52,188 nt of DNA from an uncultured Verrucomicrobia subdivision 3 bacterium (GCA_903913865.1 CAIWMU010000223.1:1-52188); one strand, 5' to 3'; counted from the stretch's first letter, positions 1-19,846 are shown. Notes: generated by a model from the sequence alone, not told the origin. Translations and numbers: made by a program.

Positions 1-930
1 CTGCTCAACCGTCAGCACGCCGTTTGTGAACGAGAAACTGTAGTTCGCGGAGGCCAGGGTTCCCAACGCCGCCGTGATGGTGTAGGGCCCCACAGGACTG
101 GCCACATCGGCCGTAGTCGTCAGGGAAGCTGCACCGGTTACCGGAGAGGGTGTCAACGGAGTCTTGCCACTGCCACGACTACCCAGGGACCTGATTCCCT
201 CGTTGTTCACAAACCCGCTGTAGCTGGCTGTGAACACCGGGTTGGTGTGCCCATACACCCGGCTCTTGTAGTCCCCGATCACCAGCAGCGGCGCCTTCGT
301 GATGCTCAGAAAGGCCTTGTTGGTGGTCACGGTGTAGTTGCCCAGCTTGCTGTCCGGGTCACTGAGCGATGGAACAATGTCGTAGGTCGCCACAGGACTG
401 AATGAATTTGCCCAGGATGTGTAGAGGCCTGTGATGTTGTCGTTGTTCAGCACCCCCACCACTGTTCCCGTGAATACAGGGTTGGTGGCACCATACAGAC
501 GATTGGTCGCATCAGCCGTGATGCTCATCGCAGCCTTGTCCACTGTCAGAGTGGCATTCGTGAAGGCAAAGCTGTAGTTCGTCGCGCTCAGCGTGCCAAT
601 CGCAGCGGCGATCGTGTAACCACCAGCCGCGCTGTTCGTGGTCGTCGTGCTCGTCAGAGAGGGAGCACCGCTCAGAACATTCGTTGTGTCCCCATTCAAC
701 CATCCCGTGTAACTGGCTGTGAACACCGGATTCGTCGAAGCATAATTCCGGCTCTTGTTGTCGGCTGCCACCGTCACAACCGCCTGCTCAACCGTCAGCA
801 CGCCGTTTGTGAAGGAGAAGCTGTAGTTCGAAGATGCCAAAGTTCCCAGTGCTGCTGTGATGGTGTAGGGACCCACAGGACTGGTCACATCCGCAGGGGT
901 CGTCAAAGAGGGGGCACCTGTGAAGGGTAT
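1..930 (-). repeat. Repeated MBG-type modules at the left edge
   Basis: Modules of about 75-90 residues carry the signature YGxTNPVFTASY(T/S)G, then a GAPSLTT-type turn, then YTI.AALGTLxxxNYSFxFTNGVLTVEQA. The DNA at 1-110 closely matches 783-895, so the unit is repeated at nucleotide level. This fits the MBG family of extracellular sandwich repeats, and more copies probably continue beyond the left edge. Confidence 0.75.
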
Positions 931-3900
931 CGGGTCGGTGACAAACTTCACCTTTGTCCCACCACCCTTCGCTACCAATATTGTGGGCCTGTTGGTCTGA
1001 ATCCCGCTGTAACTGGCGCTACACAACGGATTGGTGTGCCCATACACCCGGCTCTTGTAATCCGCTATCACCAGCAGCGGTGCCTTGGCCACCGTCAGGG
1101 TGTTTGTCCCGCTGCCAGCATAATTGGCATCCACAATGGTGCCAACGGCTGTGTAACTGCCCGCATTGACCGGCAGCTCCCCCAGCCCATTGTAGGTCAC
1201 AGAGACCGTCAGGTTGCTCGGCGTTGTCCAACTCGTTACCTCCCGGGGCGTGCCGTCGTAGGTCTGGGTCAGCGATGCCAGTTGCACGCTGGCCGCCGCC
1301 TTATTCACCACAATCGCAAACCTGTTCGTGGCATTCAGGTAACTGTCATTCGCCACAAGCGTCACCCAGTTGCTCCCGGCCGCCGTCGGCGTTCCGGAGA
1401 AGGTCCGCGTGTCGGAATTGAGCGTGATCCCGCCCGGCAAGCCGTAGGCTGTGTAGGTCAGGGTGTTGCCATCCGGATCCGTGAAGGTTCCCGCCAGGAA
1501 GGTGTAACTGAAGGCCGAATTGTAGGTTGCCACCAGATTGGTGATTCCCACCGCCAGCTCAGGCGCCCGGTTCACTGGCAATGTCCTGAAACTCAGGATG
1601 TCGCTGTAATTGGTCCCAATCCGATTGGTCACTCCCGCCCTGTAGTAATAGGCGGTGTCAGGAATCAGCTGAGTCACCAGATTGGTGATCGCAACCGGTG
1701 CCATGCCGTTCCACACCCCATCCATCAACGTGCTGAACGTGGCCCCTGTCAGGTTCGTGACCGAGCCGTATTGGAAGAATGAACCGGTCGGCAGGTCGTA
1801 GGGGGTCATGCTCACACTCAGGGTCACGACATTGCTCCCAATCAAACTGGCCGCAAGACTGGTGAACGCCGGGACCGCAGGCTCCCGAATCACCATGACT
1901 GTGTAGGTCGTGATGGTGGTCCCATCCTGGGCGGTCACCTCAACCGGGATGCTGCTTGTGCCAACCACCAGGCTGATCCATCCGGAAGCCGTTCCAGAAG
2001 CAACCGTTGTGCCGTTCACTTTCACCGTCGCGTTGCTCTGCGCCACCGTCGCCGTGATCGTCATGTTCGTCACCCCATTGGTAACTCCCGTCCAGTAGGT
2101 GCCGGTTCCAGCCGCAAAGACCGGTGTCAGCGGGCCAACATTGGCCACCAGGCCCGACAGGGCCGCGTTGGTGCTCAGCGTCACAAAGCTCAGGAACTCT
2201 CCGTAATTTGTCCCGGCAACATTCGTTCCGACCGCACGATAGTAATAGGTCGTCTCAGGCGTCAGGTTCGTAAGCATCAGGCTGGCAGGGAGAACGTTCG
2301 GGCCGACCAGTCCGCTTTGAGCGAGCACCGACAGTAGGGAATCCGGGGTAATCTTCCGGATTCGGTGGTTGCCATTATCGGCCACATAGACATTCCCCAT
2401 CCTGTCCACCGCCATACCGAGCGGACGAGTGAACTGCGCAGTCTCTGCCGTGCCATCAGCAAAACCGATTGTGCCCGAGCCGGCCAGAGTCGTGACATCG
2501 CCCACCGGGGTCACTTTGCGGATACGGTGGTTGGCCGTATCCGAAACAAACATCGTGCCACCGGCACCCACCGCCACACCCCACGTAAAATGGAACTGTG
2601 CCGCTGCGCCCGTGCCGTCCGCAAAGCCGGTGGTGGAACCTGCCAGAGTGGTTACCAGCCCGACCGGGGTCACTTTGCGGATGCGGCTGTTGCTGTAATC
2701 CGCCACATAGACATTCCCATCAGCAGCCACCCCCACGCCCCGCGGGGAACTAAACTGCGCATCCGCTGCCGTGCCGTCGGCAAATCCAGCCGTCCCGGAA
2801 CCGGCCAGCGTTGTGACTACTCCCACCGGCGACACTTTGCGGATCCGCTGGTTGAGGTTGTCGGCCACGTAAACATTTCCACTCGCATCCACCGCCACAC
2901 CAGATGGCGAAGCGAACTGCGCCGCAACGCCTGTGCCATCAGCAAAAGCGGATGTGCCCGAGCCCGCCAGGGTCGTGACGACTCCCACCGGTGACACTTT
3001 GCGGATCCGATGGTTGTTCGGATCCCCCACGTAAACATTCCCGCTGGCATCCACCGCCACACCGTAGGGAACATTGAACTGCGCTGCCGTTCCCGTGGCG
3101 TCGGCAAAGCCAGCCGTGCCGGAACCGGCCAGTGTGGTGACCTCACCCAGAGGGGTCACTTTGCGGATGCGGTTGTTGTCCCCATCCGCCACATATACAT
3201 TCCCGCTCGCATCCACCGCCACACCGACAGGGTAATTGAACTGCGCCGCCGCGCCCGGGCCATCAGTAAAGCCCATCAGCCCGGAACCGGCCAGAGTGCT
3301 GACGATCACGCTGGCGTTGGTGCCCGTACCATATTGGAAGAAGGCATCAGCCGCCCCTCCGGGGTTAACGCTTCCGTTGAGCGTGGCACTGGCCGATGTG
3401 ATGCTACTGGCCGCAAGGGTGATGCCCGCAGGCACGGCCGGATACCGCCACACCGACACCGTGTAAAAATTCGTGGTCACCCCGTCCTGCGCCGTCACGA
3501 CGATGGAGAGTGTGTTCGTGCCCATTACCAGATTGATGGCCGAACTAGCCACGCCGGAGCCCACAGTCGTGCCGTTGACCTTCAAAACAGCGTTCGTCTG
3601 GGCAGCAGTAGCCGTCACCGTCAGGCTGCTAACCCCGTTGGAGACAATGGTCGCATAGCTGACGATGTTCGAGGCAAAGACAGGGCTGAGGGTCCCCGCG
3701 CTCAGGGCGAGGTTGTTCAGCACGGCATTTGTGCTCAGCGTGGTAAAGCTCAGCATCGCGCCATAGGCTGTCCCGGCGATGTTGGTTCCCACACTCCTAT
3801 AGTAATAGGTCGTCCCGGGCACCAATCCGGAAAGAACGAGATTTGCAGGCACTGCACTGGCCCCGGCAAGACCTGCCTGGGCAGAGACCAACACCAGCGA

Positions 3901-6900
3901 GGGCGCGGTGATCCTGCGGATGCGGTGGTTGACAGTGTCCGCCACGTAAACGGTGCCGCTTGAATCCACGGCCACGCCCCGGGGGGAATTGAATTTCGCC
4001 ACCCCGACAGCGCCATCAGCAAAGTCCGCCGTGGAACCAGCCAACGTCGTGACCACTCCTGCCGGGGTCACTTTGCGGATTCGGTGGTTAAAGAAGTCCC
4101 CTACATAGATATTCCCACTGCCATCCAGAGCCACACCCTCGGGATAGTAAAAACTGGCATTCGTGCCCGTTCCATCCCCCCACGCCATCGCACCGCTTCC
4201 CGCCAGCGTGGTGACCACCCCCGCCGGAGTCACTTTGCGCATTCGGTGGTTAAGGGAGTCCACTACATAGACATTTCCACTGATGTCCACAGCCACACCG
4301 GAGGGACCATAGAACCGTGCAGCCGCATTCGTGCCATCCACATACCCTGAAAGAGGAAAAGGCGGTCCGGCTAACCTGGTGACCACCCCCCCTTGAGTCA
4401 CCTTGCGGATGGATTGACCTGAATTGTCCCCCACGTAAATGGTGCCAGCGCTATCCAAAGCCACACCTGTGGGATCCCAGAATGTCGCCGCCGCTCCCGT
4501 GCCATCCGCCCAGCCGGTTGCGTTCGTACCCGCCAGCGTGGTCACCACCCCCGCCGGAGTCACTTTCCGGATCCGGTTGTTTTGGGTGTCTGCCACATAA
4601 ATGTTGCCACTGGGGTCAAGCACTAAGCATGCCGGATTATTAAACTGTGCTTCCAAACCTGTGCCATCCGCCCAGGCCGCCGTGCCGGATCCCGCCAGCG
4701 TGGTGACAACCCCCGCCGGAGTCACTTTACGGATCCGGTTGTTTTGGCTGTCTGCCACATAAACGTTGCCAATGGTGTCAAGCGCAACCCCGCGAGGCCC
4801 TCTGAACTTGGCATCCGCTCCCGTCCCATCCGCATCGCCAAACGTAGAACCTCCCGCCAGTGTGCTGACCATGAACTCCGTGTTAGGGCTGGTGCCATAT
4901 TGGAAGAAGGCATCCGCCACCCCACCGGGGTTAACGCTTCCGTTAAGCGTGGCACTGGCCGATGTGATGCTACTGGCCGCAAGAGTGGTGCCCGCAGGCA
5001 CGGCTGGATACCGCCAGACCGACACCGTGTAAAGATTCGTCGTCACCCCGTCCTGCGCCGTCACAGCGATGGAGAGTGTGTTTGTGCCCACTACCAGGTT
5101 GATGGCCGAACCGGCCACGCCGGAGGCCACGGTCGTCCCGTTGACCTTCATCACGGCGTTCGTCTGGGCCAGCGTTCCGGTGGCCGTCAGGCTGCTCACT
5201 TCGTTCGAAACGATCGTGGTGTAGATCACGGTATTCGAGGCAAAGACAGGACCGAGCGTCCCGGCGCTCAGCGCGAGATCGCTGAGCAGCGCATTGGTGG
5301 CCGGTGTGGTGAAGTTGAGGTAACCACCTGTGCCGGAACCGGCGACATTCGTCGCGAAGGTGGTATAGTAGTAGGTATTTTGGGGCTGCAGGTTGCTGAC
5401 GGCAAGGCTGACCGGCACCGGAAGGATGCCCGTCAAGCCGGATGCGGCCAACACCACCGAGGTTATCATCGGAATGCTAACCCGGCGAATGCTTGTAAAT
5501 GAACCACCATCCGCCAGAAAGAGATTGTTGTTGGAATCCAGCGCAACGCCCCTCAGGACACCGAACCGGGCCACGCTCCCATCCCCATCCACGTGACCGC
5601 TGTTGATCGCGCTTCCGGCAATCGTCGTCACCACTCCGCGAGCAGTCACCTTGCGTACTGCGTAAAAATCACACACATAAAGGGCTCCGGCGGCATCCAC
5701 CGCCAAACCACCATAACCACCGTTAAAAGACGCCGCCGCCCCTGTGCCATCAATTGAAGCCGCCGTCCCTGATCCCGCGAGCGTCGTCACCACCCCGGCG
5801 GGTGTTACCTTGCGGATCCTGTTTTTGCTGTAAACATAGACGTTCGCGGCCGCATCCACCGCGATGCCGCTCGGTTCATCAAATTGGGCGGCAGCCCCCG
5901 TACCATCGGCTATCCCCTGTGTGCCGCCCGCCAACGTGGTCACCACGCCAGCCGGAGTAATTTTCCGAATCGCATAGTTGTTGCCGTCCGTCACATACAG
6001 GTTGGTGGCGGCGTCCAGCGCGATCCCAACGGGATAGGAGAACCTCGCCGCCGCCCCTGTGCCATTCACAAACCCATACGAACTCCCGGCCAGCGTTGTC
6101 ACCACCCCGGCTGATGTGATCTTCCGAATCCGGGAATTCAACAAATCAGCCACATACACGTTGCCCTCCCCATCCACCGCGATGCCCTGCGGGTAGCTGA
6201 ATGATGCTGAAACCCCGGTCCCCTCACTAAACGTAGGCACACCCGATCCCGCCAGCGTCGTCACCACCCCTTCCGAAGTCACCTTCCGGATCCGGTGATT
6301 GTTCTGGTCCGCCACATACACGTTGCCCGCACCGTCCACAGCGACACCGTAGGGTCCGCCGAATTGCGCCACCGTACTGATTCCGTCGGCATAACCGGCC
6401 GGACTAGAGCCAGCCAGAGTGCTGACCACTGTATTGCTCCCTGTTGCAAACTGAAAAAAGGCCGCGCTGCCCGCTCCATTGGGATTGATGCTGGCATTCA
6501 GAGTCGCCACTGTGCCAAGAACCGTGGTCGCCGCCAAAGTGGTGGCCGTCGGGGAGGCGATCACCACAACAGCGACCGAGCCGGTCACAGAAAGATAGTT
6601 GGTGCCCGCATCAGGGGTGAACACCACGGACTGCAGGTTGCTCCCCACCGGAGGGGTTGTCGCCGGTGTTGCAAAGCCAAAGCCACCCGGGACCGACACG
6701 CTGCCTCCTGTGAGCGAAGATGCCGAAAGCGCCTGCCCTAAAGTGATCACACTGGCAACGGGCCAGGTGGTTACATTCGGTGTGCCCCTGGCCACCACGA
6801 GTGTGTTTGTGGCTGCTCCGGTGTAGTTTGTGTTCCCCACCGTGCCAACAACCACATAGCTGCCCGCGTTGATGGGCGCCGTCCCGCTGGCATCGTAGGT

Positions 6901-9900
6901 GAATGTCACCGGCAAACCCTCCGGCAGTGTTGTTGCCGTTGCCACACGTGCTGTTCCGTTGTAGGTCTGGCTCAAGCCCTGCAAAGAGACCGTCGCTGAG
7001 GCCTGATTCACCACCTGGGTGAGGATGGGGGATGTGCCTGGCCCGAAGCTCAAGTCCCCCTCGTAATCCGCCGTCAGCAGCCGAATGCCGGCACTGAGAC
7101 CGTTCGTGGTGAAGCTCGCCACCCCGCCGCTCAAAATCGCGGTCCCGAGCGCTGCGGATCCATCCTTGAACGTCACTGTCCCCGTTGCATCATTGGTCGA
7201 AAGGGTCGCTGTCAGGGTCACACTCTCACCGTAGCTGGAAGGATTGGGCGAGGAGGCCAGCGTCGTGGTCGTGTCCGGCAATCCAGGCGTTATCCGCGCT
7301 TGCGCCACATAGTAGGCGGACTTCCCGCCGATCTGGGTAAAGTTTCCGCCCACATACAGGTTGGTGTCGGATGCGAGCACGGCCCTAACAAGTTGTGGAT
7401 ACCCGGAGCCAACGCTCGACCAAGTCGTGCCGTCCCAGATCGCCAGGTTGGTGGCGAGCACCGTACTGCCGTCCACATTGGTAACACTGGTATAGCTTCC
7501 CCCGACATAGAGGTCCGTCCCAGACATCGCCAAGCAATACACCGTCGTTGACGTACCGCCGACGCCTCCCCCCCACGCGGACCAAGCGCCGGCCGTCAGG
7601 TCGAGCCGCGCGATGCAGTTGGCGTTGAGCAGGGTTCCCGCCGCGTTCGTGAGCGCGGTGAATATTCCGCCCACGTATAGGGTGGTGCCATCCAGGGCCA
7701 GCGCATTCACGTTATTGTTCGGCCACCCGTCGTAGCCGGAATACTCGCCAGACACCAGATTCAGTTTGGCCACGTTCTTGAGCGGTACCTCAATCCCTCC
7801 GGCGTTGGTGGCAGCTGAAAAAATACCGCCAACGTAGAGATTCGATCCGGACAACTGCATGGCTGCGATGCTTGAATTTACACGCAAGCGCCCAAGGGAG
7901 GTTGACCAGTTCGTGCCGTCCCACTTGGCGTAGGCGGGAGCGACCAGCGCAGTTGGCCCCGCGTTGGTGACGCGCGAGAACACACCGCCGACGTGGAGAT
8001 CTGTCCCCGACATCAACAGATCATCCACTCGATTGTTTGCTCCCCCGCCCAGCGCCGACCAATTGGTCCCATCCCATTTGGCGATGTTATTGACGAGAAC
8101 GGCTGTGCCGTCGCTGTTGGTGGCATAGTAGAAATAGCCACACGCGTAGAGGTCCGTCCCGGACACGGCCATCTTGTACAGCGTCCCGCCCAGGCCCCCG
8201 CCGAGGGGCGTCCACTCGCTCCCGTCCCACTGGGCGATGTGGTTGGCCTTGGGCTTCCCATCCGCCGAGGCAAACTGGCCACCGGCATAGAGGCGGTTTC
8301 CGGACACCGCCAGGCACCATACATAGCTCTCCAGGGCACCGGGGAAATTGCGCCAAGCCGTGCCGTTCCAGCGGGCGATTCGGGACGCAAGGAAACCGCC
8401 GGCGGTGGTGATTTGGCCGCCGGCGTAGAGATTGGTTCCATAGGCCGCCAAGGCATAGACATCGCCGCCGCCCACTCCGGTATCGAGCGGCGACCAAGCC
8501 GTGCCGTTCCACTGGGCGACATTCGTGGCACTGACTCCGCCCGCCGTGGTGACCCGCCCCCCGGCGTAGAGCGTCGTCCCCGACATCGCCAAGGCGAATA
8601 CCGAACCGTTCACTCCTGTCCCCAAGGCCGACCAAGCGCTGGTGGTGAGGTTCCACTTCGCCACGGAGTTGACGCTGACGGCGGTGGAGGTTCCGTTGGT
8701 GGCGGTAGTGAACTGACCGCTGGCATAAAGGTCGGTGCCAGAGGGCAGCAAGGCATAGACGCTGCCATTCACCCCCGCGCCGAGCGCCGACCAGGCGGTG
8801 CCATTCCATTTGGCGATGCTGTAAACCGGGATTGCGGGATTGACAGAACTCGGACGAAGGGTGGCTTTGCTTGGAGTAAACCCAGCCGTGTTGGTGGCAT
8901 AAGCGAAACTCCCTCCCACGTAGAGGTCGGAACCGACGAGAGCCAAAGAAAGAACGTTTAGCGCCGCAGCGCCCACTACATCCCCCCCAACGCCACCCCC
9001 CAAGGCTGACCAGGTGGTGCCATCCCACTTCGCCACCCGATTGACGGACACGGCAATGCCACCCGTGTTGGTGGTGTATAGGAACGAGCCCCCGGCATAG
9101 ACGGTGGTTCCCGACACCGCCAGCGCTTTGACCTCCTGAAGTCCGGTGAGGGCAGCGCCCAGCCCCAGGGCGGACCAGTTGGTCCCATTCCATTTGGCGA
9201 TGCCATTGGCAAAGACGGCCGTGCCGTCGGTGTTCGTGGCGTAGGCGAATTTACCGCCCGCGTAGAGGTCGGTCCCGGAGAATTGCAGCGCCAACACATA
9301 ATTGTCCATTCCCCCGCCCAGAGCCGTCCAAGTGTTGCCATCCCACTTGGCCACGCCGCGCGATAACAGCAGATTGCCGATATCCCGGAACCCACCACCC
9401 ACATACAGAATGCCCGCGCCGTCCACGATGGTGACATTGACCGTATGGCTCGCCCCCGCTCGGCCTCCCAGGCTAATCCAGTCCTCATCGCTGAAGGTGG
9501 GATCAATGCGGAGCGGATAGGCCGCCCCGGCATCCGCCACCACCACGGCCAGCCGGTCCGCAGTCACCACATCGATCCTCGATTCCAACTCCCGCCCGGT
9601 GGCATCCGCCACATGGAGTCGGCTATAGGATAGCTTGCGCCCGGAACCATCCAGAGAGATCTGTGCTCCCGTCGCAGCTTTGGCCGCCCGGGCCCCACTC
9701 AGCACAAGTTCCACCCGCAGATCCCCGGCACCCGCTGGCGGGGCCGACACCACGAAATCCTGCCGCACCCCATCCACGCTCACAGAATATTCCTCCACCA
9801 GTCCCGGGCGGACAAACCGGGCATGGGAGGCATCCCCGCCGGGAGTCCCCCGGGCCGGTAGTGCCGCCATGCTGCTCCCGCTGCGCCCCACTGCTCCTGC

Positions 9901-10245
9901 AACAAGCCTGAACCGGTCGGCTGCACCAAATCCGGCTGTCGAAGTCAACCACAGACCCTCAGGAGTGACCTCCCCCTCCAATTTCTGGAACGTGCAACGC
10001 AGCCGGACAACCCCCTCCGGCGTGGTGGCAATGGACAAGCCATCACCCGAATACTGTGCCGTGGCCGTGGCACCCAGTTCCGACCAGGGGATCGGGGCGT
10101 TGGAGGACGGATCGGATGGAATCCCACATGCCGTGAATGCCGACAGGCAAAACACGACTGACAGCAACAGGCTGTTTGCAAGAATGGCGAACCGGTGCGA
10201 CATGCACGACTGGACGGGTTGGGGTGTTGTCATAGGATGTTCCAT
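1..10245 (-). CDS. Giant secreted multidomain repeat protein (propeller/NHL/FN3/cadherin-like/MBG), 3' end beyond window
   Basis: The minus frame is open for 3415 codons from the ATG at 10245 to base 1, so the C-terminus lies outside the window. In-frame ATGs at 10233 and 10203 are alternative starts; none has a clear Shine-Dalgarno. A hydrophobic signal (ILANSLLLSVVFCLSAFTAC) follows the third Met. Domain order, by eye: N-terminal beta region (about 40-255); 13 propeller-like repeats of about 50 residues (about 259-990); Ig-like Big_3_5 and YDG/MBG-like domains (about 994-1220); three cassettes of FN3-like domain plus inserted six-blade NHL propeller plus cadherin-like sandwich (about 1228-2787); an uninterrupted FN3-like domain (about 2788-2892); a putative-Ig domain with NRAPELAV and PGGITLNSDTRTFSGTPT; then YDG and MBG repeats to the edge. 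Such proteins are usually surface or extracellular, probably adhesive or scaffolding. No catalytic motif was found. The function is unknown. Confidence 0.9.
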   Translation of the reverse strand, partial: MEHPMTTPQPVQSCMSHRFAILANSLLLSVVFCLSAFTACGIPSDPSSNAPIPWSELGATATAQYSGDGLSIATTPEGVVRLRCTFQKLEGEVTPEGLWLTSTAGFGAADRFRLVAGAVGRSGSSMAALPARGTPGGDASHARFVRPGLVEEYSVSVDGVRQDFVVSAPPAGAGDLRVELVLSGARAAKAATGAQISLDGSGRKLSYSRLHVADATGRELESRIDVVTADRLAVVVADAGAAYPLRIDPTFSDEDWISLGGRAGASHTVNVTIVDGAGILYVGGGFRDIGNLLLSRGVAKWDGNTWTALGGGMDNYVLALQFSGTDLYAGGKFAYATNTDGTAVFANGIAKWNGTNWSALGLGAALTGLQEVKALAVSGTTVYAGGSFLYTTNTGGIAVSVNRVAKWDGTTWSALGGGVGGDVVGAAALNVLSLALVGSDLYVGGSFAYATNTAGFTPSKATLRPSSVNPAIPVYSIAKWNGTAWSALGAGVNGSVYALLPSGTDLYASGQFTTATNGTSTAVSVNSVAKWNLTTSAWSALGTGVNGSVFALAMSGTTLYAGGRVTTAGGVSATNVAQWNGTAWSPLDTGVGGGDVYALAAYGTNLYAGGQITTAGGFLASRIARWNGTAWRNFPGALESYVWCLAVSGNRLYAGGQFASADGKPKANHIAQWDGSEWTPLGGGLGGTLYKMAVSGTDLYACGYFYYATNSDGTAVLVNNIAKWDGTNWSALGGGANNRVDDLLMSGTDLHVGGVFSRVTNAGPTALVAPAYAKWDGTNWSTSLGRLRVNSSIAAMQLSGSNLYVGGIFSAATNAGGIEVPLKNVAKLNLVSGEYSGYDGWPNNNVNALALDGTTLYVGGIFTALTNAAGTLLNANCIARLDLTAGAWSAWGGGVGGTSTTVYCLAMSGTDLYVGGSYTSVTNVDGSTVLATNLAIWDGTTWSSVGSGYPQLVRAVLASDTNLYVGGNFTQIGGKSAYYVAQARITPGLPDTTTTLASSPNPSSYGESVTLTATLSTNDATGTVTFKDGSAALGTAILSGGVASFTTNGLSAGIRLLTADYEGDLSFGPGTSPILTQVVNQASATVSLQGLSQTYNGTARVATATTLPEGLPVTFTYDASGTAPINAGSYVVVGTVGNTNYTGAATNTLVVARGTPNVTTWPVASVITLGQALSASSLTGGSVSVPGGFGFATPATTPPVGSNLQSVVFTPDAGTNYLSVTGSVAVVVIASPTATTLAATTVLGTVATLNASINPNGAGSAAFFQFATGSNTVVSTLAGSSPAGYADGISTVAQFGGPYGVAVDGAGNVYVADQNNHRIRKVTSEGVVTTLAGSGVPTFSEGTGVSASFSYPQGIAVDGEGNVYVADLLNSRIRKITSAGVVTTLAGSSYGFVNGTGAAARFSYPVGIALDAATNLYVTDGNNYAIRKITPAGVVTTLAGGTQGIADGTGAAAQFDEPSGIAVDAAANVYVYSKNRIRKVTPAGVVTTLAGSGTAASIDGTGAAASFNGGYGGLAVDAAGALYVCDFYAVRKVTARGVVTTIAGSAINSGHVDGDGSVARFGVLRGVALDSNNNLFLADGGSFTSIRRVSIPMITSVVLAASGLTGILPVPVSLAVSNLQPQNTYYYTTFATNVAGSGTGGYLNFTTPATNALLSDLALSAGTLGPVFASNTVIYTTIVSNEVSSLTATGTLAQTNAVMKVNGTTVASGVAGSAINLVVGTNTLSIAVTAQDGVTTNLYTVSVWRYPAVPAGTTLAASSITSASATLNGSVNPGGVADAFFQYGTSPNTEFMVSTLAGGSTFGDADGTGADAKFRGPRGVALDTIGNVYVADSQNNRIRKVTPAGVVTTLAGSGTAAWADGTGLEAQFNNPACLVLDPSGNIYVADTQNNRIRKVTPAGVVTTLAGTNATGWADGTGAAATFWDPTGVALDSAGTIYVGDNSGQSIRKVTQGGVVTRLAGPPFPLSGYVDGTNAAARFYGPSGVAVDISGNVYVVDSLNHRMRKVTPAGVVTTLAGSGAMAWGDGTGTNASFYYPEGVALDGSGNIYVGDFFNHRIRKVTPAGVVTTLAGSTADFADGAVGVAKFNSPRGVAVDSSGTVYVADTVNHRIRRITAPSLVLVSAQAGLAGASAVPANLVLSGLVPGTTYYYRSVGTNIAGTAYGAMLSFTTLSTNAVLNNLALSAGTLSPVFASNIVSYATIVSNGVSSLTVTATAAQTNAVLKVNGTTVGSGVASSAINLVMGTNTLSIVVTAQDGVTTNFYTVSVWRYPAVPAGITLAASSITSASATLNGSVNPGGAADAFFQYGTGTNASVIVSTLAGSGLMGFTDGPGAAAQFNYPVGVAVDASGNVYVADGDNNRIRKVTPLGEVTTLAGSGTAGFADATGTAAQFNVPYGVAVDASGNVYVGDPNNHRIRKVSPVGVVTTLAGSGTSAFADGTGVAAQFASPSGVAVDASGNVYVADNLNQRIRKVSPVGVVTTLAGSGTAGFADGTAADAQFSSPRGVGVAADGNVYVADYSNSRIRKVTPVGLVTTLAGSTTGFADGTGAAAQFHFTWGVAVGAGGTMFVSDTANHRIRKVTPVGDVTTLAGSGTIGFADGTAETAQFTRPLGMAVDRMGNVYVADNGNHRIRKITPDSLLSVLAQSGLVGPNVLPASLMLTNLTPETTYYYRAVGTNVAGTNYGEFLSFVTLSTNAALSGLVANVGPLTPVFAAGTGTYWTGVTNGVTNMTITATVAQSNATVKVNGTTVASGTASGWISLVVGTSSIPVEVTAQDGTTITTYTVMVIREPAVPAFTSLAASLIGSNVVTLSVSMTPYDLPTGSFFQYGSVTNLTGATFSTLMDGVWNGMAPVAITNLVTQLIPDTAYYYRAGVTNRIGTNYSDILSFRTLPVNRAPELAVGITNLVATYNSAFSYTFLAGTFTDPDGNTLTYTAYGLPGGITLNSDTRTFSGTPTAAGSNWVTLVANDSYLNATNRFAIVVNKAAASVQLASLTQTYDGTPREVTSWTTPSNLTVSVTYNGLGELPVNAGSYTAVGTIVDANYAGSGTNTLTVAKAPLLVIADYKSRVYGHTNPLCSASYSGIQTNRPTILVAKGGGTKVKFVTDPIPFTGAPSLTTPADVTSPVGPYTITAALGTLASSNYSFSFTNGVLTVEQAVVTVAADNKSRNYASTNPVFTASYTGWLNGDTTNVLSGAPSLTSTTTTNSAAGGYTIAAAIGTLSATNYSFAFTNATLTVDKAAMSITADATNRLYGATNPVFTGTVVGVLNNDNITGLYTSWANSFSPVATYDIVPSLSDPDSKLGNYTVTTNKAFLSITKAPLLVIGDYKSRVYGHTNPVFTASYSGFVNNEGIRSLGSRGSGKTPLTPSPVTGAASLTTTADVASPVGPYTITAALGTLASANYSFSFTNGVLTVEQ
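2330..3310 (-). repeat. NHL propeller 3 (six blades) inside the giant gene
   Basis: Six blades, the most regular of the three sets, most with GFADGTGxAAQF openings. The block is bracketed by FN3-like halves FFQYGTGTN (before) and NLTPETTYYYRAVGTNVAG (after). Confidence 0.8.
3331..3735 (-). repeat. Near-identical cassette copy (partner at 4897)
   Basis: The DNA covering the first half of FN3-like domain 3 and cadherin-like domain 2 is nearly the same, base for base, as 4897-5301. The offset is constant at 1566 bp, which is 522 codons, or one whole FN3+NHL+cadherin-like cassette. Conservation at third codon positions suggests recent tandem duplication or gene conversion rather than selection on protein alone. 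Confidence 0.8.
3900..4875 (-). repeat. NHL propeller 2 (six blades) inside the giant gene
   Basis: Six blades of the same type as propeller 1. The block is bracketed by the FN3-like halves FFQYGTSPN (before) and LVPGTTYYYRSVGTNIAGT (after). Confidence 0.8.
4897..5301 (-). repeat. Near-identical cassette copy (partner at 3331)
   Basis: Second copy of the 1566-bp-period repeat. Matching begins at the codons for the FFQYGT strand of the FN3-like domain and runs through the linker into the cadherin-like domain. Differences are scattered single bases with no indel over the first 300 or so positions compared. Confidence 0.8.
5480..6437 (-). repeat. NHL propeller 1 (six blades) inside the giant gene
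   Basis: Six consecutive blades each carry a DGTGxxAxF segment, a G(I/V)AVDxxGNVYVAD core, an (N)xIRK(V/I)T strand and a GVVTTLAG turn. Six is the usual blade number of NHL propellers. The block interrupts an FN3-like domain: FFQFATGSN precedes it and NLQPQNTYYYTTFATNVAG follows it. The later blades of this copy are more diverged than those of copies 2 and 3. Confidence 0.8.
7280..9380 (-). repeat. Thirteen tandem ~150-bp propeller-like repeats inside the giant gene
   Basis: Each unit encodes roughly V(A/S)KWDGTxWxALGxGV...VxALAxSGTxLYAGGxF. I count 13 units by the conserved WDG/ALG codons, near 9330, 9175, 9010, 8790, 8635, 8485, 8355, 8215, 8060, 7900, 7740, 7580 and 7425. The pattern resembles the Kelch/delta-60 style beta-propeller repeats common in secreted verrucomicrobial proteins. 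Thirteen units would suit two propellers rather than one, but blade boundaries cannot be fixed by eye. Confidence 0.75.
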
Positions 10246-11768
10246 AAATCTGTGTTTGCTAAAGTGGGGGGATGGAGGGAAATGGATTGAAACGGACTCA
10301 GGGCTGGCTCCAACCTCCGGTCCTGGTTGCATCTCTGCCGCATGGGGAGCGTGGCAATGGGATGCTCTGGCCGATCTTTGTGCTGCAGCACAGCCCTGAA
10401 CCGGGCTTCTTCCGGCCATGTGTATTGGCTCCACCAATGACGGGATATTGTATGTGCTGAGTTTCGGGAAGGCACGAGCGCGTGTAAAAAGTGGGGAGAA
10501 GAAGGTCCCGGCCAAAACCTTGCTCAGGGACATGGAAGAACTCGGGGCGCATTTTCGCCATTTACCCGCCTTGGAAATTGGCAGATCCAGCGCCTCCCGG
10601 TGGAGGATTCCGACCATCGCGCAAGGCGATGTTCTTACTATCAATCCTGTTCTTTCTGGAGCAGGAGCTCCAATACCGTAACGGACAACACTCAACCAAA
10701 TTCCCGAGGCAGACCCTGATTCGATCGTGCCGAAACGGGTGTTGGCGGGGAGGTGCTTCGGAGGAGGAGGAACACGCGGGATAATCCGCTGATCCTAAAG
10801 CCCTTTCCGATACATCTCCACATCCAACTCCTTAGGAACCAGCCCCATTTATACCGGCTCCAACAAAAAGTGCAATATTTTATTTAATCCAACTTCACAA
10901 AAACTATAAAACTATGAGGCTTAAGAATTATGGGCCGCGTGTAGGGTGTTTCTTGCTTATCTAGTGAAATGTTACCGGCACAATCATAGCAAAATAAACA
11001 TTTTTCCAATCCTCTTCCGTTATCCCATCGACACCGAAACGTGAACCCCGGAACCGGCGTGTGATTGCATCCACCACTCGGTCGCGGGTTTGCTCTCTAC
11101 CAGTTTCTTCACAGAAGCCAACAAAGGGAACGGAGTCCGAGAGAATCTTCGTTCTCATCGTTTGCTTCTGTTCCATTTCCCTCAGGCCAAACCCGGGTGG
11201 TATGGGGCCAGTGACCCCTGGCGCGGGAAACCGGTCAACGCCCGTCCACACGCGCCTTCCCTCCCCCCATCTGCGGTTCTCCCATCCCTCCCCAGCACCA
11301 ACGGTGCGCACAATCCCAGCCTGGGGTACAGCCCCAGGAAATGGTCCATTGAAACAACCCAAGGGCTGAAGGCCCGGCATCATCCGGGCGATTCCCGGGG
11401 GAGGGGTACGTCGGGCCTTCAGCCCTTTGGATCTATTATTATGGCCAATACCCAGGCCGTTGGCCTGGGCTTTCTCATTGTGCGCCGTTGGCGCGGTGGG
11501 AAAATGGGGCAACCTCAAATCGGAGTTTTGCCAGAAGCAAGGGCCTTCAGCCCCCGGATTGACTTCTTGATGCCCGATACCCAGGCCGTTGGCCTGGGCT
11601 TTCTCAGTGTGCGCCGTTGGCGCGGTGAGTTTTAATTGTCACTGATGGCGAAGAATAATTGTCATTGAACAAGAATCCCCGAAACGCAAACAACCCAACC
11701 CCTTCTTCTCCGCGCCTCAGCCTCTCAGCGCGAGATTTCTCCCGGTCCCCGAGGACACCGGCCAACGA
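10246..11768. other. 1.5-kb gene-free region
   Basis: No supported gene. The first 700 bp (to about 10960) show no recognisable protein in any frame and may be decayed sequence. On the minus strand near 10800-10850 there is a 17-codon open frame (MGLVPKELDVEMYRKGL, then TAG) that looks protein-like but is too short to call. A short AT-rich stretch follows at about 10860-10940. The palindrome mosaic described separately fills about 11280-11630. The promoter of the giant gene should lie just right of 10245, but no convincing -35/-10 pair was found. Confidence 0.6.
11295..11626. repeat. Palindrome mosaic, block A
   Basis: A string of short perfect hairpins: GCACC-AAC-GGTGC (11295-11307); CCTGGGG-TACAG-CCCCAGG (11320-11338); a 16-bp inverted repeat AAGGGCTGAAGGCCCG (11361-11376) with its complement at 11412-11427; CCCAGGCC-GTT-GGCCTGGG (11451-11469); GCGCC-GTT-GGCGC (11482-11494); GGGC-CTTCA-GCCC (11541-11553); and second copies of the last GTT pair at 11580-11598 and 11611-11623. 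The unit 11449-11497 recurs at 11578-11626 with a 129-bp period. The mosaic lies between genes, and none of its open frames looks like a protein. Confidence 0.85.
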
Positions 11769-18913: not shown

Positions 18914-18934
18914 CCCCGAAAAATGGGGCTTTTT
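18914..18934. terminator. Weak terminator-like hairpin
   Basis: CCCC-GAAAAAT-GGGG followed by CTTTTT, preceded by AAA. The four-base GC stem is short. If active, it would shield the prepilin promoter from read-through. Confidence 0.3.
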
Positions 18935-18939
18935 CACTT

Positions 18940-18955
18940 TGGCACCGTTTATGCT
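18940..18955 (+). promoter_or_regulatory. Candidate sigma-54 (-24/-12) promoter
   Basis: TGGCACCGTTTATGCT matches the sigma-54 consensus TGGCAC-N5-TTGCW except for A in place of the first T of the TTGC element. The GG and GC dinucleotides are exactly 12 bp apart. The start point would be near 18966, about 90 nt before the prepilin ATG. Type IV pilin genes are a known class of sigma-54 targets. Confidence 0.65.
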
Positions 18956-19054
18956 TATTTTAGGATTTGTAACACAGGCACAACGTCGCGCAGCGCAGTA
19001 AACGGCAAGGTTGCGGGCGAAGAGCCGGAAACAAAAACAAACAGCAGAAAAGCT

Positions 19055-19846
19055 ATGAAACATCTAAAACAAACGAAGAAAGCGTTTACGCTGATCGAGT
19101 TGTTGGTCGTAATCGCGATCATCGCCATCTTGGCGGCGATGCTCCTCCCTGCGCTGGCCCGTGCGAAATCACGCGCCCAACGCATTAACTGCACTAACAA
19201 CTTGAAGCAAATCGGCCTGAGCTTCAAGACGTGGGCACTGGACAACAACGACCGGTATCCGATGACCGTTCCGAACTCGGATGGCGGCCCGCCGAACCAG
19301 ACCCTGCTCAACCCGTCCCCCCGTGGGACACCCAACGCCGGTTACCTGTTCCAGGTCTTCGGTGTTATGTCCAACGAACTCAGCACCCCCAAGGTTCTGG
19401 TTTGCCCCTCTGATGAACGCACAGCGCACACCAACTTCGGGATGGTGCTGAATCAGATGAACAGCGTGGCCTCCGGCACATCCTACACCCTGGCCAACAT
19501 CTATATCTCCTACTTCCTGGGAATCGACGCGACCGACAACATGCCGCAGATGATCCTGGCTGGTGATCGTAATATCGTTGGCAGCAAGGCTGTCACCACG
19601 ATCCCGACCACCATCGGCAACGGCGGTTACGGCAACGGCCCGAACCAGTCCCTCGCGATGGGCACCAACTTCGTTGGCACCGCCACCGCCCCGGCCTGGA
19701 CCGACAAGATGCACCAGAAGCAGGGTAACGCCCTCATCTCCGATGGTTCCGTGCAGCAGCTCAGCAGCTCCAAGCTCCGCGAGCAGTTCCGCACCACCGG
19801 CGACACCACCACGACCCCGGGCGAAAACACCATCCTCTTCCCCTAA
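19055..19846 (+). CDS. Prepilin-type (type IV pilin-like) secreted protein
   Basis: 263 residues. The start at 19055 puts a short basic leader ([10 protein letters not shown]) before the class III prepilin cleavage motif [20 protein letters not shown], with the conserved Glu at +5 after the cut; a longer frame from 18923 would spoil this. The C-terminal region has the H-X9-DG motif ([12 protein letters not shown]) typical of the large planctomycete-verrucomicrobial pseudopilin-like family. Such proteins use prepilin peptidase and are inserted in the inner membrane. Whether they form pili or secretion pseudopili is mostly unknown. The gene stands alone, with its own sigma-54-like promoter and an intrinsic terminator. 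Confidence 0.9.

What the first reader, a model, noticed from the sequence alone, without database searches (positions are those of the whole stretch)
1570..6564. NHL propellers inserted inside FN3-like domains, three times, with an uninterrupted fourth copy
In each cassette the FN3-like start (SITSASATLNGSVNPGG, ending FFQYGT-N) is followed not by the rest of the domain but by a six-blade NHL propeller, after which the FN3 resumes with L-P-TTYYYR-VGTN-AGT. In the fourth copy (about 1570-1880) the same two halves are joined directly, FFQYGSVTNLTG to LIPDTAYYYRAGVTNRIGT. The uninterrupted copy gives an internal control for where the propeller went in. Nested propellers in an FN3-type sandwich would put a six-bladed disc on each stalk module, in a regular array.
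Basis: partly seen in the sequence, partly recalled or inferred. Interest (0 to 1): 0.68.

Follow-up and report, generated by a model that had tools for sequence, protein, structure and literature searches.

The report
Propellers nested inside split FN3 domains
A giant, probably surface-exposed bacterial protein carries three six-bladed propeller discs, each threaded through a loop of a small fibronectin-like stalk domain, and an unrelated bacterial phylum has built the same thing with a different stalk domain, so such nesting seems to be a recurrent way to hang discs on a protein stalk.

Summary
Window 1-10233 (minus strand, running off the contig end) encodes a protein of over 3,400 aa with three FN3-like domains, each interrupted by a six-bladed NHL propeller, and a fourth that is uninterrupted. 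A profile of 265 intact FN3 domains from other bacteria matches the N halves at positions 3-44 and the C halves at about 58-94. Joined halves match 3-94 with summed bits (55, 76, 78; N-shuffled controls at most 31, 47, 50). AlphaFold2 of cassette 3 (pLDDT 92.9, pTM 0.82) gives strands A-B-C, a 24-strand propeller, then C'-E-F-G; without the N half, the C half drops from pLDDT 86-93 to 52-55. The insertion is in the C-C' turn. At least 11 nested and 4 uninterrupted copies lie in this genome, more in other Verrucomicrobiota and one Planctomycete, always in the same slot. In Bacteroidota, NHL propellers interrupt He_PIG Ig-like domains in the same way; one protein again has three nested plus one uninterrupted copy. 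Nesting lets a propeller hang beside the stalk without breaking it; multivalent surface binding is inferred, not shown. I found no earlier description in the literature searched. New variant of a known kind (domain nesting).

The parts
1..10233 (-). Giant secreted-type protein (over 3,400 aa, cut by the contig end): signal-peptide-like start, unassigned propeller-like repeats, Big_3_5, MBG_3, three nested FN3{NHL6}-cadherin-like units, uninterrupted FN3, MBG_2/MBG_3 repeats
   Evidence: start codon and signal peptide by inspection
6439..6555 (-). FN3 copy 1, N half (strands A-B-C), ends FFQFATG
   Evidence: matches independent FN3 HMM 3-43
5479..6429 (-). NHL propeller 1, six blades, inserted in FN3 copy 1
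5302..5478 (-). FN3 copy 1, C half (C'-E-F-G)
   Evidence: HMM 62-93; joined 3-92, 55.0 bits
5008..5301 (-). Cadherin-like beta-sandwich spacer 1 (PF12733)
   Evidence: three PF12733 stretches in the protein; position by alignment
4888..5004 (-). FN3 copy 2, N half, ends FFQYGTS
   Evidence: HMM 4-44
3910..4878 (-). NHL propeller 2, six blades
3736..3909 (-). FN3 copy 2, C half
   Evidence: HMM 58-94; joined 4-94, 75.9 bits
3442..3735 (-). Cadherin-like spacer 2 (PF12733; best stretch aa 2155-2244)
3322..3438 (-). FN3 copy 3, N half (model strands 10-17, 24-31, 36-43)
   Evidence: HMM 5-43; AlphaFold2
2347..3306 (-). NHL propeller 3, six blades: one outer strand first (51-56), three strands of the last blade at the end (345-370), so the first strand closes the last blade
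   Evidence: PDB matches to NHL propellers Z 45.6
2182..2337 (-). FN3 copy 3, C half (model strands 374-383, 389-395, 403-412, 415-425)
   Evidence: HMM 62-94; joined 5-94, 78.3 bits
1882..2175 (-). Cadherin-like spacer 3
   Evidence: alignment
1567..1881 (-). FN3 copy 4, uninterrupted
   Evidence: matches FN3 models 4-94 without a gap; PF16656 17-93

Best explanation
Each cassette is one FN3-type beta-sandwich whose C-C' beta-turn is opened and carries a complete six-bladed NHL propeller. The propeller is itself opened at the c-d turn of its last blade, its first strand closing that blade, so its two ends lie side by side; they are joined to FN3 strands C and C' by short linkers. Shown: the split domain, the slot, six blades, shared inheritance of both halves and the propeller, recurrence in other genomes. 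Inferred: the FN3 remains a continuous link in a surface stalk (MBG, Big_3, cadherin-like, FN3), while the propeller hangs off-axis, outside the path of tension, as a repeated ligand-binding disc. Multivalent binding of extracellular polymers or cells is the most likely use.
For: Complementary coverage of an FN3 HMM trained on other genomes, summed bits when joined, controls far lower. Own genome: 4 full-length FN3 matches and about a dozen split pairs, with nothing in between among strong hits. AlphaFold2 of the nested cassette: pLDDT 92.9, pTM 0.82, strands 3 + 24 + 4; with the N half removed the C half drops to pLDDT 52-55 and strand C' is lost. Propeller = NHL fold: SOQ1 7djm Z 45.6, rmsd 1.5 over 307 residues. 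Same slot and 264-334 aa inserts in other Verrucomicrobiota families and an Isosphaeraceae planctomycete. Pairwise distances of N half, C half and propeller correlate (r 0.41-0.65, Mantel p <= 0.011), so the cassette is inherited as a unit. Parallel nesting of NHL in He_PIG domains in Bacteroidota, with a T9SS-type tail, fits a surface-display role.
Against: No model coordinates or PAE were available, so packing of the halves is not measured directly. In the deletion control the uninterrupted FN3 copy 4 also had low confidence (pLDDT 25-39, thin alignment), so that control is suggestive rather than clean. Stock Pfam fn3 models do not pass on joined window copies. Nothing tests ligand binding, export or surface location; the gene's end is off the contig.
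Confidence: 0.8

Rival explanations
1. The propeller sits between two separate domains: a degenerate FN3 remnant before it and an independent small beta domain after it, with no shared sandwich.
For: Stock Pfam matches are confined to the C half in W2 and W3.
Against: The halves cover complementary, non-overlapping parts of one FN3 profile in every cassette; strand counts are 3 and 4, neither a complete FN3; the C half loses confidence without the N half; the two halves co-vary in divergence.
Confidence: 0.05
2. The nesting is real but neutral: a propeller was captured once by recombination among repeats, and the cassette spreads by duplication within giant repetitive genes, without a selected role for the disc.
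For: Cassettes behave as units and FN3 hosts of nested copies cluster in the tree; one origin is not ruled out. Presence is patchy, with full junctions in only a few percent of sampled genomes.
Against: Blade number, insert length and slot are kept at 40-60% propeller identity, and an independent He_PIG/NHL nest exists in Bacteroidota, both of which suggest constraint.
Confidence: 0.2
3. The uninterrupted copy is not an ancestral control but a cassette that lost its propeller.
For: Uninterrupted copies of this genome lie among the nested ones in an unresolved tree.
Against: Uninterrupted FN3s are by far the commoner form in other bacteria. The tree cannot decide (64 of 101 inner branches open).
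Confidence: 0.35

Closest known systems
Bacterial FN3-like domains (SATLNGxVNPNG...FEYGT...LSGLxPxTTYYYR type; Pfam fn3/PF16656-like)
   Same: The host domain: all seven strands and the conserved motifs; uninterrupted copies in the same protein
   Different: Here the C-C' turn holds a ~320-aa propeller
NHL six-bladed propellers (SOQ1, NHLRC2, TRIM71, PknD, designed Pizza proteins; teneurin-like protein 9ifo)
   Same: Fold, blade motif, six blades, one-plus-three strand closure; the teneurin-like protein's NHL shares 42% identity in the structural alignment
   Different: In matched PDB chains the match is confined to the propeller; none has FN3 halves on both sides
He_PIG (PF05345) domains interrupted by NHL propellers in Bacteroidota (found here: L087, L177, L179)
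   Same: Ig-like host split by an NHL propeller; L087 has several per protein with an uninterrupted copy beside them
   Different: Another host family, another loop (between NxGGxv and ysIsPaLPxGL), another phylum
Known nested domains such as integrin beta (I-like domain in the Ig-type hybrid domain) and prolyl oligopeptidase (propeller in the hydrolase domain) (own knowledge, not tested)
   Same: A domain inserted in a loop of another; Ig-type hosts and propeller guests each have precedent
   Different: No precedent known to me for a propeller guest in an FN3 or He_PIG host, nor for tandem arrays of such nests

Membership tests
FN3-type domain (host) | Full-length match of the joined halves to an FN3 profile built from unrelated intact domains | tested here: met
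   HMM positions about 3-94 of 96, 52-82 bits for 11 cassettes, all above shuffled and swapped controls
FN3-type domain (host) | Pfam gathering cut-off for fn3 / PF16656 | tested here: not met
   Joined W2 21.1 and W3 20.5 bits vs 30 for PF16656; the uninterrupted control W4 also only 24.2, so this reflects model reach
FN3-type domain (host) | Seven strands A-B-C-C'-E-F-G in one sandwich | tested here: met
   Seven strands predicted, 3 + 4 around the propeller; packing itself not measured
NHL propeller (guest) | PF01436 repeats above cut-off | tested here: met
   15 stretches, 335 bits against cut-off 20
NHL propeller (guest) | Closed six-bladed fold | tested here: met
   24 strands in 1 + 5x4 + 3 order (one short edge strand in places); Z 45.6 to 7djm, 41.1 to 6xg7
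Teneurin / teneurin-like proteins | YD-repeat shell following the NHL domain | tested here: not met
   PF25021 TEN_NHL matches the propellers, but no RHS/YD family is among the Pfam matches of the 3392-aa protein; the missing 3' end was not seen
He_PIG/NHL nests in Bacteroidota | PF05345 match above cut-off across joined halves, with an NHL propeller between | tested here: met
   L087 third nest 38.4 bits, 9-95/96; L179 45.9 bits 4-94, L177 48.1 bits 2-91; the C half carries most of the score in the one case tested (42.1 of 44.1). This is the parallel case, not the window's protein
Secreted/surface protein | Export signal and anchoring at the cell surface | not testable with these tools
   Signal-peptide-like N terminus by inspection only; C terminus missing from the contig

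The most novel reading that the evidence does not exclude
Ig-type sandwiches in giant bacterial surface proteins have independently captured six-bladed propellers at least twice (FN3 C-C' turn in Verrucomicrobiota/Planctomycetota; He_PIG loop in Bacteroidota), because a velcro-closed propeller has adjacent ends and can be spliced into a beta-turn, giving a general 'side-mounted disc on a load-bearing stalk' architecture.
Probability: 0.6. Interest if true: 0.62.

Novelty: new variant of a known kind. Interest (0 to 1): 0.52.

Why it matters
Domain annotation misses these hosts, because each half falls below profile cut-offs; giant surface proteins of the PVC group and Bacteroidota may therefore hold many more unrecognised nests. 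With nested and uninterrupted copies of one domain in one protein, the cost and benefit of inserting a 320-residue disc into a 90-residue sandwich can be measured directly. It also offers protein engineers a natural template for hanging a propeller on a beta-turn without breaking a stalk.

Tried and rejected
Pfam on joined halves: inconclusive for the window copies, as the stock models are too weak. Foldseek and VIA-align with the nested model list only propellers (rows span model residues 48-374), so they say nothing about the sandwich. Deletion control: the uninterrupted copy 4 in the same construct was also poorly predicted, so it could not serve as the positive control. Tree of FN3 hosts: too few columns; nested copies cluster, but one or several origins cannot be told apart. 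Artefact of assembly or frameshift: rejected, since the frame is open throughout and the arrangement recurs on other contigs and in other genomes. Searches of a 5.4-million-paper open library for NHL with FN3, He_PIG, domain insertion or Verrucomicrobia found no description of such nesting; subscription papers are not covered.

Full report
WHAT WAS CLAIMED.

THE OBSERVATION. The frame is on the minus strand, 1..10695, 3565 codons, open at the window's low end. The window is a complete 52,188-base contig of a 6.27-Mb genome in 267 contigs, so the gene's 3' end is missing. The protein (P0001) has, from the N terminus, a signal-peptide-like start, about 700 aa of propeller-like repeats without a Pfam match, Big_3_5, MBG_3, then three units of FN3-N / NHL x6 / FN3-C / cadherin-like sandwich (PF12733), then an uninterrupted FN3, then MBG repeats. 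FN3 starts are at aa 1224, 1742, 2264 and 2784, a period of 518, 522 and 520 aa. Coordinates agree with the finding.

IS IT ONE SPLIT DOMAIN? I built an FN3 profile from 265 intact domains of other organisms, leaving out the window's genome and all proteins with nested copies. N halves align to profile positions 3-44, C halves to about 54/62-94, and joined halves to 3-94 with bits equal to the sum: 55.0, 75.9 and 78.3 for the three window copies. With the N half shuffled the maxima are 31.0, 46.7 and 50.1; with the halves swapped 25.9, 39.2 and 43.5. Across the genome the FN3 profile gives four full-length hits and otherwise split pairs. Stock Pfam models are weaker: for W2 and W3 they see only the C half, and they miss their cut-off even on the uninterrupted copy.

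STRUCTURE. AlphaFold2 on cassette 3 with seven other aligned cassettes gave pLDDT 92.9 and pTM 0.82. Strands 10-17, 24-31 and 36-43 (A, B, C) precede the propeller; 374-383, 389-395, 403-412 and 415-425 (C', E, F, G) follow. The propeller spans 51-370 with 24 strands: one outer strand first, five full blades, then three strands, so that the first strand closes the last blade. As a control I predicted the same propeller and C half without the N half, followed by the cadherin-like domain and the uninterrupted FN3. The C half, with the same aligned rows, fell from pLDDT 86-93 to 52-55 and lost strand C'. The uninterrupted copy, whose alignment was thin, was also poor, so this control is supportive but not clean. 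PDB comparison identifies the guest as an NHL propeller: SOQ1 7djm Z 45.6, rmsd 1.5 over 307 residues; NHLRC2, Thin, TRIM71; teneurin-like protein 9ifo Z 39.3, 42% identity. A profile of the cassette finds no solved chain that matches beyond the propeller to any real extent.

WHERE EXACTLY. From the profile and the strands, the insertion lies in the turn between strands C and C'. The propeller is open at the corresponding c-d turn of its last blade. Two beta-turns are thus cut and cross-joined, with about 7-13 residues before the first propeller strand and a few after the last. This is an inference from strand positions.

SPREAD. This genome holds at least eleven nested cassettes on six contigs (W x3, C78, C102 x3, C180, C253, C134 x2) and four uninterrupted copies, plus two N halves cut by contig ends. 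One C134 cassette has a propeller only 23-28% identical to the others in the same slot. Relatives: other families of the order (G023, G046), other families of the class (G244, G247, G272), another class (G273). The G023 locus was seen only as a junction match; its cassette is cut by the contig end. Named records: uncultured Verrucomicrobia LaPlata_bin-2736, an Akkermansiaceae MAG, a Verrucomicrobiales MAG with two nests, and an Isosphaeraceae MAG of the Planctomycetota. It is rare: three other genomes with a full junction of 286 sampled in the class, one of 246 Planctomycetota, at strict thresholds.

INHERITANCE. Distances between N halves, C halves and propellers correlate over 24 cassettes (r 0.41-0.56 overall, 0.58-0.65 in the own genome; Mantel p 0.0002-0.011). 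The cassette therefore evolves as a unit. The FN3 tree clusters nested copies (9 changes against 23.4 for shuffled labels) but cannot decide between one and several insertions, nor whether uninterrupted copies are primitive or have lost the propeller.

A SECOND, INDEPENDENT CASE. The scan also returned L087, from a Bacteroidota MAG (labelled Flavobacteriaceae). There an NHL propeller splits a He_PIG domain (PF05345): the natural stretch shows no He_PIG match, the joined halves match 9-95 of 96 with 38.4 bits against a cut-off of 24. The same protein has three such nests and one uninterrupted He_PIG, and ends in a T9SS-type tail (the tail by inspection). A sample of 296 Bacteroidota genomes found junctions in five more; two read through here are nested, one of them twice, with 44-48 bits when joined. 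In the one case tested the C half alone holds most of the score (42.1 of 44.1 bits), so profile coverage, not bits, carries the argument there. The uninterrupted L087 copy was not reported by Pfam at E 0.01; its identity rests on the close similarity to the nested halves. Host family and loop differ from the FN3 case, so these are best read as separate captures.

HOW IT WORKS. Shown: split domain, slot, fold of the guest, recurrence, joint inheritance. Inferred: because the propeller's ends are adjacent, the sandwich can close around them and stay a link in the stalk, while the disc hangs beside it. In an end-to-end arrangement the propeller would carry the load; nested, it does not. Three discs at a fixed spacing suggest multivalent binding at the surface. 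No ligand, export route or anchoring was tested. The neighbouring genes are ordinary (LysR regulator, amidohydrolases, radical-SAM/TRAM methylthiotransferase-like protein, GlnD, HlyD-type efflux, subtilase) and give no hint.

VERDICT. Observation and interpretation both hold. Nesting of domains is a known kind; a propeller inside an FN3 or He_PIG sandwich, in tandem and in different phyla with different hosts, is to my knowledge undescribed, within the limits of the literature searched.

Noticed in passing
window about 7290-9490 (minus strand; aa ~230-960 of P0001): About 14 degenerate repeats of the type LYVGGxFxxATNxxGxxVxVNxIAKWNGTxWSALGxGVxGxVxALAxSG, probably one or two further propellers, with no Pfam match.
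   Followed up: no
L087 (Bacteroidota MAG), aa ~60-1480 of the 3072-aa frame; L177; L179: NHL propellers nested inside He_PIG Ig-like domains; L087 has three nested copies and one uninterrupted, and a T9SS-type tail.
   Followed up: partly
L036 (own genome contig C134), second cassette: A highly diverged propeller (23-28% identity to the NHL ones) occupies the same FN3 slot in the same protein.
   Followed up: partly
L035 (contig C253), end near 6354-6479 and L037 (contig C133), end: Two more FN3 N halves cut by contig ends; the one in C253 lies in another frame behind a stop, perhaps an assembly error in repeats.
   Followed up: no
L086, cassette at 5026-6276: One blade lacks its outer part (VTTLAQYFYDPCGVAV), so the propeller there has a shortened blade.
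   Followed up: no
window 18923-19846 (+): Protein with an N-terminal methylation motif (PF07963, pseudopilin type).
   Followed up: no
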